From Chromera velia (lineage: Eukaryota; Sar; Chromeraceae), in assembly GCA_018398765.1 (NCBI GenBank), contig JAHBMJ010000594.1, forward strand, positions 17,596 to 44,019: a DNA stretch of 26,424 nucleotides, read 5' to 3'. This document shows, piece after piece, positions 13,764-25,332 of the stretch (within the stretch, counting starts at the first letter, position 1; each line of letters starts with the position of its first letter). A program made the position numbers and the translations under genes. The notes below the pieces were generated by a model. It was not told the DNA's origin, made no database searches, and was given only the letters and a program-made list of their open reading frames with translations.

Positions 13764-16076
13764 CGCGCGCGCAGGCAGGAGACAAGGGGTTTGACCCTCT
13801 TGGGTTCTCAAGCGTTTCCACAAAGACGAACATGAACTATCTTCGGGAAGCAGAGATTAAACATGGACGCGTTTGCATGATGGCAACTCTCGGGTGAGTG
13901 CTTTCTACCGTTCTGCCTACACATCCAAAGCAGCTGCGTGTGGTTGACGAGCGGCGACAGCAGCTGGAGGTTCCTTCGCTCTCCGTCCTTCTCCGAAAGA
14001 CGTTGATCAAGTTTCTTTCTGACTCTCCTCTGCGTGGCCTCTCGAAAAAACAGTCAAATATTGCTTTTCAGCGTTTTCAATTGCATGTTATTGTGCTCTG
14101 GGACAGCAGATGCCGACTGTGGCCGTGTTGGAAAGCGGCCTTGCACGCATGAAAGCCCAATAAAGTGTGTCTGCATTCGCGCCAGTCCTCGCACCGTGTG
14201 TTTTGCGTACGCTGCAGGACCATGCAGGTTTCCAGATGGTCTTTGTCGCGTGTGTATGGAGCTTGTTCATGCCTGAATTCCTGTCTTAATTGTGTGTGTG
14301 CATGCAGGTTTGTGGCAGTGGACTGCGGATTTGTCGCCCCCCAGTTCGAAAAGGTCTCTTCGTTGAAGGCGCACGACGCGAACCTCGGGTGGATGGCCCT
14401 GATTTTTCTCCTTGTCGGAACGATCGAAATCTTCACAGCCAAGCTGATTGGAGATCCCGACAGGGAGCCTGGCAACTTCGGTTGGTTGGTTGGGGGGCTG
14501 GTTTTTGCATTTTTGACTGGCTTTGGGAATTTTTGACTGGCTTTGGGCATTTTTGACTTGCTTTGGGCATTTTTGACTTGCTTTGGGCATTTTTGACTTG
14601 CTTTGGGCATTTTTGACTGGCTTTGGGCATTTTTGACTTGCTTTGGGCATTTTTGACTTGCTTTGGGCATTTTTGACTTTTTTTGGGGGGTGGAAGGGGG
14701 GGCGGTAAGTGGGAGGACGGTTTGCAAGGAGCGCAGGAGTGAGTGATCAGATATTCGCTCATGAGGAGCCTCGGGTGTCTTATGAGACATGGGGCAATCA
14801 AAAACGGGGAGGAGACTGCGCGATGCATGGGTTTAAAAGAAACGAAAGAAAAAGAAAAAGGAAGAACAGAAGAAGAAGAAGAGGTTCGTCCAGAGGGAAG
14901 TCTGCAACTGTCTCGTTCCATCCTCTTTTTCTCTCTCTCTGAGACCGCTTCCGTTCCCCCTGTCTGCTGTTGGTTTCTCATCGATGCGAAAGGCCTTTTC
15001 TTTCACTCCTTTCTGCTGGTTTTCATCTTTACTCTCGGCTCCTTTCTCTCCCTCCATTTGCGTCCCTTGTGCATACAGGATTTGACCCCGCAGGGCTGGA
15101 GAAGTATGACAAGAAGGTGAGTGCGTTTACTTTCATACCTCCCTGAAAAAGAATTCTGTATGAAAGGAGAAGTATGACAAGAAGGTGAGAGGACCTAGAG
15201 GAAGAAAGAAAGAATGAAAGGAGGAAGCGATTCAGAAAGTCTGCAGTCCTTTCTCTGCTCTGCTTTTTTCTTCTCTGTTGTGATGGATTCTCGCATTCCC
15301 GTAAGTTCTCTTTGTACCTGTCTGCATTCTGGAATCCCCTTCTTTGTTCTTCGAAATACCAGCTACGGGAGATTTTTTTTATATCGCCCCCCCCCTTTTT
15401 TCTTTCAGTATTCCCTTCCTTTTCTCTTGAGTGACTGTCCCATTGTGGCGTAATACTGACAACCCAAGCTTTTTTCCTGAGTTCTTTTCCACCACAGCCA
15501 CTCTCGATCTGCTTCCGGTCCCCCCTTTCTCTCTTCCTTCTTCCCTTCCTCGCCATTCGACTGCGACTTGAGCAATTCAACGAAGAGCGAATTCAAATTC
15601 TAGATTCATGATGGTTGCTTCTCTCTCTGTCTCTCTGTTTGCCTCCCTTCCTGTCTCTCTGTTTGTTTCTTTGATTGATCTTTCAGGGCACTTTCAGGGA
15701 AAACGAGATCACCCACGGACGTGCCGCCATGCTCGCATTTTCCGGTCAGTTAATTCAGGTATATCAGTAGACTCAGTTGAAGGAAGCGAGCTCAACCAGG
15801 ACGTGGAAGTTGAGGAAGGACGCTTTTGTCCAACTTTCATTTCAATACAGTAAGTGCAGCTTCAAACTAGCTGTATGCTGTTTGTTTTTGGACACCAAAG
15901 ACATCCAGTGGCTCGATCCTTTCTGCATCCATGGTGGTGCATTCGTAGCATTCTTCTTCTTTTCGTTGATTTGTGTATCATTTGCTTGTCTGTCTGGATG
16001 GATGCATGCAGGCATTGTGACACAGTCTGCGCTGTTCAACACCGGGTTCCCCTATTTCGGGAACTTCGGATCCTAA
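12747..16076 (+). CDS. Plastid light-harvesting chlorophyll-binding protein (FCP/LHC family), seven exons
   Basis: It binds chlorophyll and carotenoid in thylakoid antennae. Exons are 12747-12800, 12878-12991, 13775-13893, 14308-14480, 15079-15116, 15687-15744 and 16012-16076, giving 206 aa with all phases consistent. Residues 1-19 form a signal peptide ([16 protein letters not shown]) followed by AFAP at 19-22; an aromatic residue at the cleavage site is the hallmark of bipartite targeting to red-derived complex plastids. [11 protein letters not shown] at 58-68 is the N-terminal LHC motif. Helix 1 carries EIKHGR (Glu83, His86, Arg88), helix 2 is about 122-142 with Glu136, and helix 3 carries EITHGR (Glu173, His176, Arg178). 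Glu and Arg of helices 1 and 3 form the central chlorophyll-ligating ion pairs. [10 protein letters not shown] precedes helix 3. Exons 5-7 are small. The exon 5 donor region is duplicated by a short mobile element (15098-15189). Confidence 0.93.
13688..13772. repeat. (TA)n(TG)n(CG)n tract at a 3' splice site
   Basis: An alternating pyrimidine-purine tract of about 85 bp passes from TA to TG to CG and runs straight into the CAG acceptor of light-harvesting exon 3 (AG at 13773-13774). There is no conventional polypyrimidine tract. Confidence 0.95.
14507..14680. repeat. 20-bp minisatellite, about nine copies
   Basis: The unit is ctttgggcatttttgacttg with G/T variation near its end. It starts about 27 bp after the donor of light-harvesting exon 4. 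It lies wholly inside intron 4. The periodic peptide visible on the opposite strand is a by-product of the repeat. Confidence 0.97.
15098..15189 (+). mobile_element. Small palindromic element A with 24-bp flanking duplication (exon 5 donor)
   Basis: A 24-bp sequence holding the end of exon 5 and its donor (aagaag|gtgag) occurs at 15098-15121 and again, identically, at 15166-15189. Between the copies are 44 bp starting TGCGTTTACTTTCATAC and ending GAATTCTGTATGAAA. Both ends match element B; the right end lacks the outer nine bases of the inverted repeat. Using the second donor would read through the element into a TGA, so the first donor must be the functional one. The second is a decoy inside the intron. 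Confidence 0.85.
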
Positions 16077-17890
16077 GCGGCTGGCTGGCTGGCCTTCTTC
16101 TCCTTAAGTGCCGTCTTCCCTTTTCTCCTTTCTTCTTTCTTCTCTTTTTTTGAGTGGAGAAAAAGAGAAAGAGAGAGAGAGAGAGAGAGCAGGGGAAAGG
16201 GGGACAGGGAAGATCAGGAAGGTACCCTGGATGGTGTCTGTTTGGGGTGGCGCTTCCTTTTTTGTTTCCGGTGTCTGTCTTTTTCTCTCTCTCTCTGCCT
16301 GTATGTCTCTCTTACTGTCTGGATTCAGGATTCAGCCAGGAGTGAGGAGGGGAGCAGAGGGCATTCGAAAGGGGAAGAGCAGAGCACGCGGCCTGTCTCT
16401 TTCTGGGCAGGGTGTGAAACCTCTTTGTTGCTTTCGATGTTGAATGAGTGAAATGTATCTTTCCACATATGAATGGATGAATGAATAAATGGATAGTTGG
16501 GTGGTTGTACGGGGAAGACTTGTGCATATTTCTTTGTTGCAAGGGAATCTTTCAGGAGACGAGCGAGGAGGGACGGTGGAGGAAGACTGGTGTGCCTTTT
16601 TTGTCTGTTGTATTGATCGAGTCTGAACGAAAATGATTGACTCCCGTGATCGCTGGAGATCTCCCTACCTTCGGCTTGTAGCTCTATCGGATGGATAGAC
16701 GGAAGGGAACGGATTGAATGAGACGGGAAGAGGGAGAGATGACTCAATGTGTCGCTTGTTCTTTGTCAGCCCGGAGGTTGAACGAAGCAAACGGAACAAA
16801 AACAGAGGAAAGAGCAAAGGTCGAGTCCACTCTGCAGTAGTGGAGACGAAAGAAGAGACCTGAGGCCGATCATCGCACTAGTAGATCCGGAACTGCGCTT
16901 GTTGACTTTGCTTAGGAAGGGAAGGGAAGGGAAGGGAAGGAAAAGCGATAAGTGCAGCACATGCATGGTCTCCATATGCAAGAATACGGTGAGGGACCCA
17001 AAGCGTGTATATGAAGAGAATTGAAGAAGAAGAAGAAGGGAGCAGGGATCGAGAAAAGAAAGACGAGATAGGAGCAGACGGCGGCAAGGGACGGGTACCC
17101 CTCTCTTTGGAGGGCTTCCTTTCTTCCCGCCTGAGTCGCGTGTCTCTGAGTCCTCGATCTTCTCTTTTTTTACTTCCTGCATGAGGACGCAAAAAGGGGA
17201 CGTGCGTGCACGCGGTATACAGATCTGCATGTCAACGAGGCGGACAAGCAGAACACTTTTTGAGCGCAGGGTCGTAAATCATACACAAGAAAAAACATGA
17301 ACTTCCGACGGTCTGGCGAATGAACACAAAAGAAGCTATAGAGTCACTGGGTCACACTGCCACATAGATTAATTATCATTGATTAATTAGAATTAGATGT
17401 AGCTAAAAACTGGTTTAGAGGCCTCGATCATTTTCTACATATAGCTCATTTTATTAGTAACTTTAGAGATGTGGTATATGAGTCATACATGGATTGACAG
17501 GTAGTAGCATTGGATACATATCAGTTTTTTTTTTTTTTAATTTTTTGCTATATAATATTTTTATGGCATTGGATTATACTAACTTTAAAGTTTATAGACT
17601 TGCATAGGTTTGCCTTTATAGTTTTATTGGGCTAGTTATTGGGCTCGATCGTTTGGCGGCGTCAGTTTGGCTTAATAAAAACTTCAGTCTTCAAACTATT
17701 AAGTTGAAACTAAAAATAATTCCTAATATCCTATACATTCAAAATTCAATAACTTTAATTTATTAGTTCAGTTATTAATGCTTAGTGACTAAATAGAAAT
17801 ATGCGTACTAAGAATGTTTTAATGGGTGATGAACATCCAATATACACTCTAATAGTGACTCTATAGTATACACCGGTGTTAAACCTAGTG
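16077..17890. other. Convergent intergenic region, left part
   Basis: It lies between the 3' end of the light-harvesting gene and the hAT-type element. It contains a GA microsatellite (about 16160-16192) and an AATAAA at 16484-16489 (possible but distant polyadenylation signal). There is a GGGAA run near 16918-16940, and AT-rich sequence from about 17340 on. Open frames up to 154 codons at 16766-17230 (-) are low-complexity and have no recognisable domain. Confidence 0.45.
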
Positions 17891-19069
17891 CTAGGCGTGG
17901 TTTATACATACATATATACATTAAATTCTGTCCATCAAGAATGTATGTATGTATATATATAATGTATGTAAACTAATGTTATAAAAGTTATTTTCAAAAC
18001 TAAATTCTTGATAATGCCTAGGACAATGCCAGTTAAGTTCCTACTCAAGTTTATACAGTCAGTTTAGTAGTTGGTCTATTACCAAACTAGTGACAATTTG
18101 ACACTGACAAACAAGGAGAGGACTTATATGCTGAGCTAGACCTGAGCTAGAAAATTAGTAGAAATTAAATTTAATTTAGTTTTTTTAGCTAAATACTTCA
18201 TGCAAAAAGCTGGTATGAAAACTTATTATTAAAAAGTTTAAGTAGGAGTCACTACACTGTAGGATAGCTGATAGTATGGTTTGAAAGCAAACAAAACGGA
18301 CACTCCATCGATAGATTCGGTTTTCCGTACGCAACGAAGAACCTCTAACTTTATTGATCTGTTCTTAGGTTCCAGGAAAACTCTTTTTGATAGTCGGATG
18401 CTACTTACTGACTTCACAACGTCAATAATTCCTAATTTTTCCAGGACCTCTATCGCTGCTCTCTCCTCCTGTCATCGTTTTTTCCCCTTTCTCCCACCTT
18501 CTGCATCAACACCCATAGCTGTAGCTGCAGCTGCAGAGGCTGCAGTAGGCTGAGCACTCACCAGTGGCTGGACATCATCTCTCTCCGTCTTCATCCATAC
18601 AATGGTCTTCTCTATTAAAATAGAAGCCTCATAGTCACTCTTACCAGGCCCGCCCACTCTAACTCTATCTGATCGCGTTGCCTTGGCTAGCTAAAAAATT
18701 TATGACCAGTGCCGCTGCGCCAGTCAAGTTTAAGTCTCTCTGCCACTTCTATTCTGCATTCAAGATGAGACCAATCGCTTCGAGCTCTCTCTCCTAGTTA
18801 AGCACAACTAGCCGCCCAAACTTGTCCTTCCCCCCTTCTCCTTCTGCGTTGACTTTGATTAGCACAGGGCGACACTCTTCTTCTTTCTTACCTTCTCCGT
18901 CTGTCACCGTCCATGGCTCCCAGTCTTTATCAGACTCTGAATCCGATTCCCTCTGTATTACCTCTGTTACTATTTTTTTGAATATAGTCTTTATATACAT
19001 TGTGTATACATTACATTCTCCAAGTGCAGAATGTACGTAAGAATGTATGTATGTATAAACCACGCCTAG
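17891..19069. mobile_element. hAT-type DNA transposon, degenerate, 1179 bp, 8-bp target duplication
   Basis: The terminal inverted repeats start CTAGGCGTGGTTTATACATA, and the right end is the complement. The element is flanked by a perfect 8-bp direct repeat, ACCTAGTG, at 17883-17890 and 19070-19077; eight bp is the duplication size of hAT transposases. The interior is AT-rich on the left. On the right it carries broken minus-strand coding-like fragments: an acidic SDSESDKDWEPW segment around 18900-18960 and a segment with EAIGLILNAE and LNLTGAAALVINFL (18675-18790) interrupted by stops. I cannot identify a transposase motif, so it is either non-autonomous or a decayed copy. Confidence 0.8.
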
Positions 19070-19390
19070 ACCTAGTGTTAAACTGCATTTCAGACTAGAT
19101 TTCAGAGCTGTCGCCACATCTTTAAAATCCCAGGGGGCTTAGTCCCTCAATGTCCCTGACAGATCTCACAGATTGATGGCCGAGACCCTTCAAGAGGGAC
19201 ACTACTACAGCTGCAATCTTCTAGTGATAGAAATGGCTGCATGTCCCTAGCTCTTGAACGAACACAAAATCCCCGACTGCATGATACTTCCGATCCCTCC
19301 CTAAACCTCAGTCTCCCAAACTTACATTTTTCTTTTCCTTCTCTGGCAAGAACTTCTTACGTGCATGCGCTTTTCTCCTATCTGACTCTC
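19070..19390. other. Short stretch downstream of RPT4
   Basis: It holds the right target duplication of the hAT-type element, then unremarkable sequence up to the RPT4 stop codon. It should contain the RPT4 3' UTR and polyadenylation site (minus strand), but no clear AATAAA signal stands out. Confidence 0.4.
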
Positions 19391-20022
19391 TCAGAATTTG
19401 GAGTAGTCCATCTTGCTCTCCAGCTTTTTGTTTTCAGAGATCTTTCGCGCTGCCTGCACCAGAATCCATCAAAAGAAAAACTGACAGACGCAGACTTTAC
19501 GTTCAAGGTAACGACGATTGAGGAAACGAGCGAATCAATCATGAAAAGTCAAAAGGTACACGTCCAAACCATGGGAGGACTCTAGACAGATCGGAAAAGG
19601 TTAGAAGGCGAAAAAGAAAAAACGCCCAGAGCATCTCAAGTGAGGAATTTCACCGTTCTCTTCCTTCCTTTCTTTCTTGCTTCCTTCCTTCCTTCCTTCC
19701 TTCCTTTCTTTCTTTCTTTCTTTCTTTCTTTTTTGCTTCCTTCCTTTCTTGCTTCCTTCCTTTCTTTCTTCCTTTCTTCCTTTCTTTCTTTCTTTCTTTC
19801 TTTTTTGCTTTCTTTCTTTCTTTCTTTCTTTCTTCCTTTCTCTTTCTCTCTCTCTCACACACACACACTCTGTCTCTCGGTCTACTTCTGTACACACGTG
19901 CACAAACGGAAATATACATAGACAGATAGGTAGAGAGCGAAAGAGAGATAGAGAGAGATCGAGGGAGGGAAGGAGAGGGAGATAAATACATAGATAGAGA
20001 GGAAGAGAGACAGCGACGAAAC

Positions 20023-20058
<36 letters not shown>

Positions 20059-23000
20059 GCGCCAATCAACGGACGGACCTTCATGAAGTCTTCCTCAATC
20101 ACATAGTCTCTGTCGGCTCTGATGGCGAACAGACCTGCACGTAGAAGAGAGAAAAAACAGTAAAAAAAAGAGAAGAGGAACGACGAAAACCGAACAAGAG
20201 AAGAGGGGAGAGAAGAAAATTACAGCGACAGAATGGGCTGAGCCACCTCAGCGGATGGGACACCGCGCGAAGGAGCAGACAGCCAACCAAGCGGAGAGGC
20301 AGGGAGGGAGGAGACACGGGGGCCTTTCCTTTTTTCCGACCTCTTTCTCTCTCATACAGTCGACGGAGAAAGGATGCAAACACGTTCTCAGAATGGCATG
20401 TCATCTGTCAGCCGAATTTGCAGAAAGGCATCAGACGCAGACGAAGAGAGATAGAGAGAGCGCGACCAACCGGCTTCTGTGCAAACATTGCGCAAGTCGG
20501 CACCGTTGAATCCATCACACAGTTTGCACACCGCTTCGTAGTCTGCACACACGCAGAGATCGAGAGAAAAAGCGAACAAATATTCAGAGAGCCAGGTGCC
20601 GTTCAACACATCAATTAAATGCGGGTCTGTTTGCACACAGGACTCAAGCAAGACTGGATGAATGGAAAAAGGAGTTGCACCCGAACCCTCTCGGGCCTGG
20701 AGGCCTCACCCCCTCACATCCGCCCAACCGCCTGTCGGTCTCTGGAACCCCTTTTGCACCCTCAGTTCATAAAAGTTTTTCCGACTCCGTATTTTACACC
20801 CAAACCCACACAGAGGTTAAAACCCAGGGTCCCATACACAAAAGGAGAAGAACCCAAAATGCAATTGTGTTCCGTAGTTTCGAGACAAAACAGAGAGGAG
20901 ACAGGACACCCAAAATGGATTCAAACCAACCACTGTGTCAGGCACAGAACGACAGCATCCGTCACATCAATCAATCTTGTTTCTGCAATCTTCCCCCTTC
21001 AGAGAGGCTTAAAAATCTGGGATCTCTTCTTTCCTCATGAATCAATAAATCTACCCAGCACGCACTTTCTTCATATGGATTTTGGCTGTTGATGCAGCAA
21101 GCATCGAGAGCATCAAGGAAGCAGGCGGGAGAAAAGGAGTAAAACTTCCAGCGAAAGCTGTTTTGTAAGACTGCATGCACAGCCAGCAATATGCGCTTCG
21201 ATCGCGGTCCTACTGGAAAGAAACGGAAGACTCACTGACTTACCGACGTCCCCGCTCTTGGTGATCGAGCTGGCGTGGATTTGGAGAATTTCCATTCGGG
21301 CGACTTCGTTCGGCAGGGGGATCTCCACCTTTCGGTCTGAGAACGAATTACGGGAAGAGGAAGCGAAGATGAAAAGGGTACTACAAAATCCGTTTCCCCG
21401 CTTGTTCGTTTGACGCCATTGGAACGAAATTGGGCACCCCTATTCAATGTGCAGACGAACAGAACGGCAATCACGTCACGGTTTCACACACACGCACAGT
21501 CACCTCGACGCCCACACCCACGCACGCACCTTGTCCTTACACGCGCACACGCACACAGACGACGGGAGAGAGACGGACAAGCAGGCAAACGGAGACAAAA
21601 GGACCGACCGACCAACCGACCGAGTCTGCCAGGTCTCATGAGTGCGGGATCCAGCACGTCGGGTCTGTTGGTTGCCATGATCAATTTGACCTTCCCGAGT
21701 TCGTCGAAGCCGTCCATCTGATTGAGCAGCTGCACTCACTCACTCACTCACTCACTCACTCAGTCGTTTGATGGAAAAGATATCAACGTGGGCTTTGGGA
21801 GTCTCTCTTGGACTTTCATCTGTGTATCTGCCCATCCCTTTCTCTCTCTCTTCTCTTTGGTTGCCTCTGACGGCGTTTGCTATCTGCTTGTTCACTTTCC
21901 CTGCGTGTGCATGAGCCGAAGAGGACACAGACCATACTCAACTTCTCATCGCACTGAGACAATAACACCAGCTTTCAACTCCCGACACTACTAGCTGGAT
22001 ACGGTGGGTGAAGAGGAATAAAAAGGACGGTATGCCACATCAGTAGCGACTGGACACATGGACACACGGGAAAGTGGGGAGGAAGTGGGGAAGAGACAGG
22101 TAGACGGAGGGAGCCACTGCTGACCTCCATAAGAGTTCTCTGGATTTCTCTGTATGCGTTTACTTTCATACAGAATTAAAATTAAATAAACTACAGAATT
22201 AATACAGAATGTATGAAAGTAAACGCATCCCCTGCTGACCTCCATAAGTGTTCTCTGGATTTCTCTGTCGGCAGATGTGCCCTGAGAGAAACGTTTGCCC
22301 CCAATGGCATCAATCTCGTCAATAAAAATGATGCACGGCTCGTGCTCACGAGCGTAAGCTGCAAGGAGGACACGTACACATTGACAAAATCAAAACCGCA
22401 GATGGAAAAGGAAAGGGGTTCCTGCCTGCATTGTTCTGCCTCCCTGCCTCTCATTCCCCTCTGTCTCTCTGCACTCTGTTGAGAGAGGGGCGTTGGATGG
22501 ACCATTTCCGTTCCGTATTTCTTGAAATCACGCATGCAGGCATGTACTATTAATAGCATGACGCACGAAACCACCGCCGTGAAACAAATTGAAAGATCAA
22601 AGACGCAAGCAAGCACAACAGAGAGAGATTCGGTGGATCGATCAATCGTTCGAAGCTGGCCTGTCGGACACAGACATGAATTAAATGAAGGAAGGAGCTA
22701 GGAAGAGGACTGACTGACAGAACATCTCTCGGATGATCCTTGCGGACTCTCCGATGTACTTGTCCACAATTCCTGACGCAACAACCTGCATTTATTTTCA
22801 TACAGAACTCATTTTAATGCATTAACTTCTATATGAAAATAAATGCATGCGGACTCTCCGATGTACTTGTCCACAATTCCTGACGCAACAACCTGCAGGC
22901 ATGATCGATGAGGAGGAAGAGGGAAGATGCCCCCTGCGGTACTTTATCTCTCTCTGTTTTCTTCCTACCTGCCTGACTTCTTTCTAGGAATGCAGGCTTT

Positions 23001-23528
23001 TCAACAAGGCTGGTAGAGTCGGTCCATGCCGACACAACAAAAAGAAACGCCAACAGCGCTCTTTCTGTGGCAAGCGTTCGAAGACACGAGGCGGCCACTC
23101 TAATGTGTGAGAAGATACGCCGAGACACACAGAATCACGGTCCAGAAATGAAACAAGAAAGACTCCTGCAGAGAACGAAAAACTTGCATCAAGTACACTG
23201 CGATTCAGAAAATGAACGCTGACGCACGCACGTGCACACAGAAAGATCTCGGCCCTCCCACATACCCAGCAACCCCCCTACCTTCATGAAGTTGCAGGTC
23301 ATGTTGGAAGCCATGGCTCTGCGGTCATATGATCATGCAATGTCACTCAGTCAGTCAGTCAGTGCGTGCATGGGAAGCATACGAGGAGGAAAGGAAGAAA
23401 AGAAGCAGAAAGGGTGCGGGCCGTCTAGGGGCCCCCCGCAGAAGGTCATATGCGTGGGATGCACGTAGGACTTGTTCATGCTTCTATCGATGCTTGCCAA
23501 TCTGTTTCCATCACCTCCTCTCCCTCTC

Positions 23529-23559
<31 letters not shown>

Positions 23560-25332
23560 TTGCTCTCTCTCCCTCTCTCTCTCTGTCTCCTTCTCTTGCA
23601 AGGGTGAACTGAATTACGTTCTGCATACATGAGTCTTCCTGGAACCCGCTTTAAGCTCCTCTCATCTGTCTGTCTGTCTCCATTCTGACCAACCAACCTT
23701 GCCAAAAGAGTCTTCCCCGTCCCCGGAGGCCCGTACAGAAGGACTCCTGCACGCACGTGCACACACACACTCAAGCTCGTTCATACACACCGGGACAGAG
23801 AGCACGCACACTCACGGGAAAACGTTGAGAAGCAGCACGCATCCCGAAGTGAAGAGCAAAGAACAGAAAGGAGCAAAAGGTGAGGAGATTAGCTGCAGAA
23901 GGACAAATTGTAGCAGATACACAAGATCGTTCTGTATTTCTCTTCTGTCGTCATTTCACTCGGCTATCCATTCATCCTTCGTTTTCCCCTCGTTTCTCTA
24001 GGGAAAAGTGCCGCTTTCATACCTGCCGCTCCAACTCGATGATCGCATCACCCCTGCCGTCCAACCTTGACCTTACCTTTGGGTGTCTTGATCCCAACAC
24101 GCCGGAAGAGTTCAGGATTTGTTAGGGGTAGCTCGATCACCTCCCTCATCTGTCTGATTTGCTCCTGCAGTCCCCCCACCTCCGTGTACGACACCTGCGA
24201 GGTCAAGGCAGGAGAGAGAACAGAAGAAAAGAATACAGGCAGGAGGCAGGGTGCATGGAGGATATTCAGTTTCATTTTGATTGCTTCCTTTCAGATTACG
24301 AAAACTTCTATCTGTATTGCTCGATCACTCGATGGCTTGTTATGTTCTTTCGTTCTTCTTTTGTTTGTTTCCTTGTGTGCTTCCTCCCCTCCTTCCTTTC
24401 TTCCCTTGCCCTCGTTTTCTCTGGCTGACTGAAAAATGCTCAAAGAATAAAACAGCTAGGCGAGTGTATGGGGCGTCTGTTTGGTCAGGCAGCCAGCTCC
24501 GAACGAGCAGACTTAGGGAGAGGTTGTTTTCATACATTTGTCGGTACATGCTCACTCGAAGCGCCCTGAAGAACATGCTCTCTCCGTCTCTTTCCTTGTT
24601 TGCTTCTTCCCTCTGTCTCTTCTGTTCACGGGAGAGAAAGCATCGTGTCCGACAGAGGACAAAAGGAAGGGTGCAGAGGGGAGGGGGAGAGTGCAGGGAA
24701 GGGCAGAAGGGCGAGTGCACGCACGTTGCCTGGGTCTTCGTGGAGCATGTTGAAAACAGAAGGGTCAACCTCACGCGGGAGTTGTCTGAGGATCGTCATC
24801 GTTGTCATGTCCTGCAGAAGGCAAGGCACAAAGGCAAGCCAGCAGGCAGGGACACTGTCTATTCCAGATAAGGGTGTGTGGGGTGGTTTGCGGTCGCACA
24901 GTAGCCTCTGAAGTGGTTCATTATTGACGGGACCTGATAGATCCACTGGCTACTCGAAAGCGTTTGTGCAGGGAGAAGAGGAAAGGGAGGAATTTGCCTT
25001 CAGTGGAGAGGCAAAAAAACGCTGGAGAGGGCAGGATTGCGGATTCGAAATAATTCGAAATAGAAGAACAACGGCAGAATTGTGGAGAGAATGCAAGAAC
25101 CAAGGTGCACATACGGAGCGACAGAGACTGGTGAGGAAGAGAGCCAGACAGGTAGGCGGAAGGAAATTGACGAGGAGTCACCAAGAAGGATCGAGGCGGA
25201 GTCAGCTCACCAATGCGACACGAACGCCAGCCACCAGTTTCGCTTTGTCCAATTTCACCCTCACTCCCACGACATATCGGGGTCCGCTGGACGCCTTCAC
25301 AATGACTGCACATTGCATGGGAAGGGAAACCA

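What the first reader, a model, noticed from the sequence alone, without database searches (positions are those of the whole stretch)
15098..22893. A family of tiny TIR elements inserts at splice junctions with 24-46 bp duplications
A, B and C share TGC[GA]TTTA[CT]TTTCATA at one end and TTCTGTATGAAA at the other. All three lie within about 11 nt of an exon-intron boundary, in two unrelated genes. All three carry direct duplications far longer than the 2-10 bp made by usual cut-and-paste transposases. Either insertion is guided to splice sites (through the spliceosome, R-loops or nascent RNA), or only insertions whose long duplication preserves a full exon edge survive selection. Both would make this an introner-like mechanism with a distinctive duplication signature. 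I know of no described system with this combination.
Basis: partly seen in the sequence, partly recalled or inferred. Interest (0 to 1): 0.92.

Follow-up and report, generated by a model that had tools for sequence, protein, structure and literature searches.

The report
Tiny palindromic elements at splice junctions
A probable alga genome holds many copies of a mobile element only about 40-110 bases long that, when it lands, duplicates an unusually long stretch (mostly 20-55 bases) of its target, and that is found more often than chance at exon-intron edges, where the duplication can keep a working splice site.

Summary
A, B and C are real, and all three duplications cross an exon-intron boundary: A in an LHC-type gene, B and C in a proteasome ATPase gene. 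The genome (177.8 Mb, unnamed, probably Chromera velia) has 1,866 matches to one element end, against 26 for the reversed control. Of 153 sampled element clusters 147 have a flanking direct repeat. In 122 single insertions it is 13-68 bp long, median 36.5. The element looks like a two-arm palindrome (inferred full form 74 bp; no intact one seen, longest perfect stretch 46 bp). Splice-junction-like signals occur in 42% of duplications, 15% of random and 16% of same-locus shifted intervals. I read seventeen junctions by protein similarity; one kinase copy is intronic. No larger relative was seen. Best reading: a non-autonomous mobile palindrome joined into long-staggered breaks, biased towards exon edges, kept where the duplication preserves the splice site. 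It is not a standard introner: duplications are too long, and in readable cases the intron already existed. Direct splice-site guidance is neither shown nor excluded.

The parts
15098..15121 (+). A: left copy of the 24-bp duplication, crossing the 5' splice site (...KYDKK|gtgag) of the LHC-type gene
15122..15165 (.). A: element, 44 bp, left end complete (TGCGTTTACTTTCATA), right end truncated (TTCTGTATGAAA)
15166..15189 (+). A: right copy of the duplication
22114..22153 (-). B: first copy of the duplication (40 bp, 95%); on the minus strand it is the copy on the intron side of the junction
22154..22228 (.). B: element, 75 bp, 19-bp perfect terminal inverted repeats
22229..22268 (-). B: second copy, crossing the 5' splice site after ...RTLME of the proteasome ATPase gene
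22741..22790 (-). C: first copy of the duplication (50/50 identical), the copy that continues into the exon [10 protein letters not shown]...
22787..22847 (.). C: element, 61 bp, 21-bp inverted repeats (95%); its TGCA ends are shared with the duplication
22848..22897 (-). C: second copy, crossing the 3' splice site tgcag|GTTGTTGCG; upstream, intron-side copy
13775..16073 (+). Host gene of A: chlorophyll a-b binding (LHC) protein, hand-read exons 13775-13894, 14306-14482, 15078-15116, 15687-15758, 16011-16073
   Evidence: Pfam Chloroa_b-bind 3.5e-13 for the first of these exons, no hit for the second, others not submitted
20079..24194 (-). Host gene of B and C: 26S proteasome regulatory ATPase (Rpt4-like, subunit named from memory), nine coding stretches read by hand
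   Evidence: Pfam AAA 2.8e-08 and 3.7e-08 for the two exons submitted

Best explanation
A high-copy family of non-autonomous mobile palindromes. Each arm reads TGCRTTTAYTTTCATACAGAATTCTTTTTCAGGGAGC at its longest; two arms facing each other would make a 74-bp palindrome, which is inferred, since the copies I saw have a lost, shortened or scrambled centre or arm. SHOWN: copies share ends, sit at different loci, and nearly all sampled ones are flanked by direct repeats of their own target, mostly 20-55 bp; the joins carry lost, shared or added bases; splice-junction-like signals are enriched in the repeats. INFERRED: the target is opened by two nicks on opposite strands some 15-60 bp apart, the element DNA is joined in with loose end processing and the gaps are filled, which duplicates the target. 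Insertion favours exons or exon edges. A copy within an exon would disrupt the protein and is lost; a copy whose long duplication contains a whole splice site leaves one intact junction, so element and spare copy are spliced out with the existing intron. Such copies accumulate, and some later expand into tandem arrays.
For: Copy number: against reversed controls. Duplications: 105 of 113 clusters with repeat score at least 15, against 228 of 2,000 random places, 87 of these non-tandem; 20 of 20 and 19 of 20 in two later samples drawn with other motifs. In 179 kb of long loci, nearly all chosen because they hold the family, 34 of 45 non-simple repeat-insert-repeat structures contain it. Junction scan: score at least 8 in 50 of 119 duplications, 14.7% of 4,000 random and 16.1% of 756 same-locus shifted intervals. 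Seventeen junctions read by similarity; exon part longer than intron part in 15 of 17 (lengths counted by hand, tallied). Pfam support for host genes. Repeat plus insert length modulo 3 is spread 43/33/46 over 122 copies, so most are not in-frame exon additions. End scars: of 32 tails after a complete right end 25 begin with T; of 27 before a complete left end 20 finish with A, as if copied back from the TGCA end. Several half-units joined inside one insertion (L107, L108).
Against: No enzyme, larger relative or donor was found. No intact 74-bp palindrome is in the fetched loci; the longest perfect element palindrome is 46 bp (L108). The coding model is weak: self-training failed and the codon table from the window gave a kinase exon a slightly negative score, so the junction scan rests mainly on splice motifs and open frames. 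A test of GCAG polarity in the two halves of the duplications was negative, 49 against 46, and a control word pair was as skewed as the splice words. Part of the TGCAG excess comes from the element's own TGCA ends, and plain GTGAG and GTAAG are not enriched. Eleven of 45 repeat-insert-repeat structures lack the family motif, though one of these carries its core word. The 17-junction table was chosen where similarity could be seen, which needs an exon at the site. No RNA data.
Confidence: 0.58

Rival explanations
1. Splice-guided insertion: a protein or RNA at the splice site or on nascent transcripts directs the cut, one nick a few bases into the intron and the other 20-45 bases into the exon.
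For: In 17 readable junctions the intron part has median 8 nt and the exon part 29 nt; in the scan the intron share is 0.39 against 0.52 in controls, p 0.003. Both 3' and 5' sites appear (28 and 22 of 50). No sequence motif other than a weak TGCA marks the duplication edges.
Against: Exon-biased insertion followed by selection gives a similar skew. At least one copy lies about 110 nt inside an intron (L020). No machinery was identified.
Confidence: 0.2
2. No dedicated transposase: the element is small palindromic DNA captured by end joining at natural long-staggered breaks, for example paired nicks near transcribed exon edges.
For: Variable duplication length, filler and shared bases at the joins, scrambled and concatenated inserts, no autonomous relative among 153 sampled clusters; 11 of 45 repeat-insert-repeat structures hold other DNA.
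Against: 34 of the 45 hold this one family (loci chosen for the family), whereas random capture should bring in many kinds of DNA. One sequence reaching this copy number implies a mobilising system or a very abundant source.
Confidence: 0.17
3. Retroposition of a short hairpin RNA by target-primed reverse transcription, the long duplications being its target-site duplications.
For: Broad duplication lengths are usual for that mechanism (recalled); 56 of 87 single copies have only one complete end.
Against: I saw no 3' tail in the copies printed; both ends are the same TGCA-ended arm and 27 of 87 copies have both complete (the sample was chosen on a complete end).
Confidence: 0.08
4. Classical introners that create new introns.
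For: Intron-associated inverted-repeat elements in an alveolate-like genome; introners are known from related groups (PMC9860276, PMC7789003, passages read).
Against: In readable cases the intron exists apart from the element (for example LHC, proteasome ATPase, Mg-chelatase). Published introner duplications are 3-9 bp or 3-5 nt.
Confidence: 0.06

Closest known systems
Introners / introner elements (Micromonas, Aureococcus, Symbiodinium, Amoebophrya)
   Same: Small, multi-copy, non-coding elements, some with inverted repeats, tied to introns in protists (passages of PMC9860276 and PMC7789003).
   Different: Their duplications are 3-9 bp or 3-5 nt and they make the intron; here 13-68 bp, at the edge of introns that already exist in the readable cases.
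MITEs
   Same: Short, inverted-repeat ends, no coding capacity, many copies, target duplications.
   Different: MITE duplications have a fixed short length for each superfamily (recalled); here the length varies about five-fold within one family, inserts are mostly about 40-110 bp, and no partner transposon was found.
IS1202-group insertion sequences (bacteria)
   Same: Inverted-repeat elements with unusually long duplications, 16-28 bp (passages of PMC10132070).
   Different: Bacterial, about 1.5-2.5 kb with a transposase; shorter and narrower duplications; no splice junctions.
Direct repeats near splice sites (Rogers and Bendich 2025, PMC11782384)
   Same: Direct repeats at or near intron/exon borders, read as insertion scars.
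   Different: Abstract only read: 4-30 bp, mean 11.4, around the borders of whole introns; here a junction is duplicated around a tiny element at one end of an intron.
Tandem duplication at staggered nicks
   Same: Offset nicks filled in give duplications of tens of bases (recalled, no paper read).
   Different: Here one specific palindromic sequence is usually joined in at the break.

Membership tests
Introner | Multi-copy sequence associated with introns across many unrelated genes | tested here: met
   genes named
Introner | The element creates the intron (supplies or recruits both splice sites of a new intron) | tested here: not met
   In A, B, C and other readable junctions a separate intron continues beyond the element; copies that could not be read were not tested
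Introner | Short target duplication, 3-9 bp | tested here: not met
   Median 36.5 bp, range 13-68, in 122 single insertions
MITE | Terminal inverted repeats without coding capacity | tested here: met
   many copies have one arm truncated; inserts too short to code a transposase
MITE | Target duplication of fixed short length | tested here: not met
MITE | Autonomous transposon with the same ends | tested here: inconclusive
   None seen among 153 sampled clusters; family-model searches of the genome did not complete
Target-primed retroposed element (SINE-like) | 3' tail or simple-repeat tail, promoter, RNA source | tested here: inconclusive
   No tail seen in printed copies; Rfam gave no match at its thresholds for L107, L108 and the window; promoter and RNA source not tested
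IS1202-like DDE element | Related transposase | not tested
   No transposase candidate to compare

The most novel reading that the evidence does not exclude
A mobile system whose insertion is guided to exon-intron junctions: an enzyme acts on splice-site DNA or nascent pre-mRNA/DNA hybrids, cuts a few bases into the intron and 20-45 bases into the exon, and installs a short self-complementary DNA so that each insertion carries its own spare splice site and is spliced out. It would be a transposition strategy that makes gene-dense targets harmless by duplicating the splice junction itself.
Probability: 0.22. Interest if true: 0.93.

Novelty: new variant of a known kind. Interest (0 to 1): 0.76.

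Why it matters
Target duplications of one eukaryotic inverted-repeat family normally have one short length (recalled). A family with 13-68 bp duplications, enriched at splice junctions, points to an undescribed integration route and a simple way for mobile DNA to live in intron-rich genes without harming them: copy the splice site together with the insertion. It also gives a natural test of how tandem splice sites are chosen, and a source of exon-edge repeats and arrays.

Tried and rejected
Self-trained coding models, one seeded on long open frames and one on average protein composition, drifted and missed known exons of the window; discarded. A codon table from 396 window codons was kept but is weak. 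GCAG polarity within duplications: no signal, 49 against 46; donor words 25 against 11, p 0.03; a control word pair was equally skewed, so this test was not relied on. A 'near' search of the phage collection with window 21640-22900: no match. Rfam: no match. Pfam on the 20 open frames first picked by an early score: 3 gave hits, of which WD40 (L022) and dynein (L071) were used and a low-complexity one (L039) was not. In some searches, 13 of 16 frames from loci other than the window had a hit; L082, L132 and L145 had none. Assembly error was considered and rejected: single structures are mostly under 200 bp, the published Chromera assembly used k-mers of 71 (PMC4501334, passages; that this is the same assembly is my inference), and the loci have different repeats. 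Rows dropped: 7 of 108 sites (L016, L052, L054, L091, L102, L107, L108), because the array arithmetic left under 12 bp of repeat or the site had N runs; 2 more of 121 for short flanks. L054 is a simple-repeat match counted as a repeat. Of the 6 clusters without a detected repeat, L049 and L076 show a decayed one by eye; they were not counted. The reading of the last 20 loci was by eye and not blind.
Full report
What is in the window. Three elements lie at 15122-15165 (A), 22154-22228 (B) and 22787-22847 (C). A is flanked by 24/24 identical bases, B by 38/40, C by 50/50. B and C have 19-bp and 21-bp inverted repeats; A keeps one full end and a truncated other end. The host genes were read by eye from three-frame translations: an LHC-type gene on the plus strand and a proteasome ATPase gene (Rpt4-like, named from memory) on the minus strand. 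Pfam supports the LHC gene (3.5e-13 for one of two exons submitted) and two ATPase exons that meet at AAA profile positions 89/88 on either side of the intron at B. A and B duplicate a 5' splice site, C a 3' splice site. For scale: about 26 hand-read junctions in about 6.4 kb of genic DNA give roughly a 15% chance that a random 37-bp stretch there crosses one; my arithmetic.

Genome. The window lies in a 177.8-Mb assembly of 4,040 contigs. No name is given; size, gene content and intron-rich genes suggest Chromera velia, whose published assembly is 193.66 Mb (PMC4501334, passages); this is an inference. TGCRTTTAYTTTCATA with up to one mismatch occurs 931 + 935 times, reversed control 15 + 11. 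The inner word CTTTCATACAGAATTC, also with up to one mismatch, occurs 690 + 751 times, control 0 + 3. A list shows only about 100 places, so I sampled: 60 stretches around places, 38 and 2, 20 more and 20.

Duplications. In the first sample (window included), 108 of 113 element clusters have a flanking direct repeat (score at least 11), 105 with score at least 15; of 2,000 random places in the long loci 228 have one, 87 of them non-tandem. The second sample gives 20 of 20 and the third 19 of 20, so 147 of 153 in all; one of these, L054, is a simple repeat. Over 122 usable single insertions the repeat is 13-68 bp, median 36.5, middle half 27-44; the insert between the copies has a median of 69 bp; the two copies are identical in 41 of 122 and have a median identity of 97%. 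Sixteen of the 138 usable sites are tandem arrays of repeat plus element, up to nine units. A first census in 179 kb gave 202 repeat pairs, 61 with a family motif, the rest that I could see mostly tandem or simple repeats. A cleaner one counted 45 single, non-simple repeat-insert-repeat structures, 34 with the family. Apart from the window these loci were chosen because they hold the family, so the share is not a genome average.

The element. Arms reach TGCRTTTAYTTTCATACAGAATTCTTTTTCAGGGAGC at their longest. Facing arms would make a 74-bp palindrome without a loop. That is an inference: no fetched locus holds it, and the longest perfect element palindrome is 46 bp, in L108. The joined centre, with up to one mismatch, is found at only two places in the genome, those of L107 and L108; both insertions carry several half-units joined together. 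Other copies look like versions with the centre deleted or scrambled. Joins are loose: many have 1-4 shared bases or a few added ones. Added bases after a complete right end begin with T in 25 of 32, and before a complete left end finish with A in 20 of 27. That looks like short back-copying of the TGCA end, as in opened hairpins, though a longer true end of the element would give the same picture.

Splice junctions. A scan using splice-site tables from hand-read window exons plus open frames gave a score of at least 8 for 50 of 119 duplications (42%), 14.7% of 4,000 random intervals and 16.1% of 756 intervals shifted 100-250 bp in the same loci; at least 10: 21%, 4.3% and 6.9%. The window's own three sites are among the 119 and their junctions helped build the tables. 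An earlier run without the second sample gave the same picture, rank test p 2e-12. Donor-like words are about twice as frequent in duplications as outside, and TGCAG three times, part of the latter from the element's own ends (the printed denominators for the donor pattern are off, so only the rough ratio is used). Two plain donor words were not enriched: GTGAG 8 and GTAAG 2 in the duplications, below the background rate. Taking about 70% detection from already read junctions (scores), roughly half of all duplications cross a junction; this is an estimate.

Junctions read by similarity (17; lengths counted by hand, tallied): A, B, C; WD40 L022; dynein L071; EGF-repeat genes L021 (two sites, one covered by the Pfam query) and L027; ubiquitin hydrolase L037, WDR35 L083, Mg-chelatase L073 (the hit is in the neighbouring exon), PAPS reductase L079 (hit upstream in the same frame), epimerase L136, kinase L139; cyclin L018; and L132 and L145, recognised from memory as a nucleotide-sugar transporter and an RNA polymerase second subunit, with no Pfam hit. 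In WDR35 the Pfam match stops at residue 117, within two codons of the junction read inside the duplication. The exon part is longer than the intron part in 15 of 17. EGF gene L028 also reads as a 5' junction but is not in the table. Against: in L020 a kinase exon ends about 110 nt before the duplication, so that copy is intronic; L064 and L143 sit at or near the ends of recognisable coding segments but are ambiguous. In the last 20 loci I judged 15 to cross a junction, 4 unclear, 1 without a repeat; this reading was not blind.

What it means. Selection alone can delete exon-breaking insertions but cannot raise junction-crossing ones above their share among harmless ones, so insertion must favour exons or exon edges. 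The duplication then explains survival: one copy of the splice site stays joined to its exon while element and second copy fall into the intron. Whether the bias comes from the splicing machinery, from transcription, from nucleosome spacing over short exons or from base composition (GC is 54% in duplications and 48% in the long loci) is open. Edges of duplications carry no motif beyond a weak TGCA, 30 inside against 8 outside of 200 edges, and some pyrimidine excess outside.

Known systems. Previously described introners have 3-9 bp duplications and make their introns (PMC9860276, passages); those of Amoebophrya have 3-5 nt repeats (PMC7789003, passages). The longest inverted-repeat duplications I found in print are 16-28 bp in bacterial IS1202-group elements (PMC10132070, passages). 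Searches of the open library for Chromera with introner, MITE, palindrome, intron or repeat terms, and for long duplications or direct repeats at splice sites, listed nothing that describes this family, judged from titles and abstract starts apart from the five papers opened (searches; papers); subscription papers are not covered.

Noticed in passing
window 17360-19060: AT-rich block between the LHC and proteasome ATPase genes, with short repeated stretches (gtatgtatgtata and its complement), possibly a decayed mobile element; seen by eye.
   Followed up: no
window 14506-14680: Tandem array of a 20-bp unit (GCATTTTTGACTTGCTTTGG) inside the LHC intron that begins after GNFG.
   Followed up: no
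L012:1337-1790: Tandem array of about 80-bp units that contain the element's core TTTCATACAGAATTCTTTTTC joined to GGCCAACTGAGGGCCAATTTCCC.
   Followed up: no
L045:370-976, L036:307-1090, L042:1212-1866: Arrays of repeat plus element (9, 6 and 6 units, over 98% alike between neighbouring units), probably recent expansions.
   Followed up: partly
L107 and L108: Insertions holding several half-units in both orientations, with the only two joined palindrome centres found in the genome.
   Followed up: partly
L021, L027, L028: Genes with EGF-like exons carry elements at exon edges, in L021 at more than one.
   Followed up: partly
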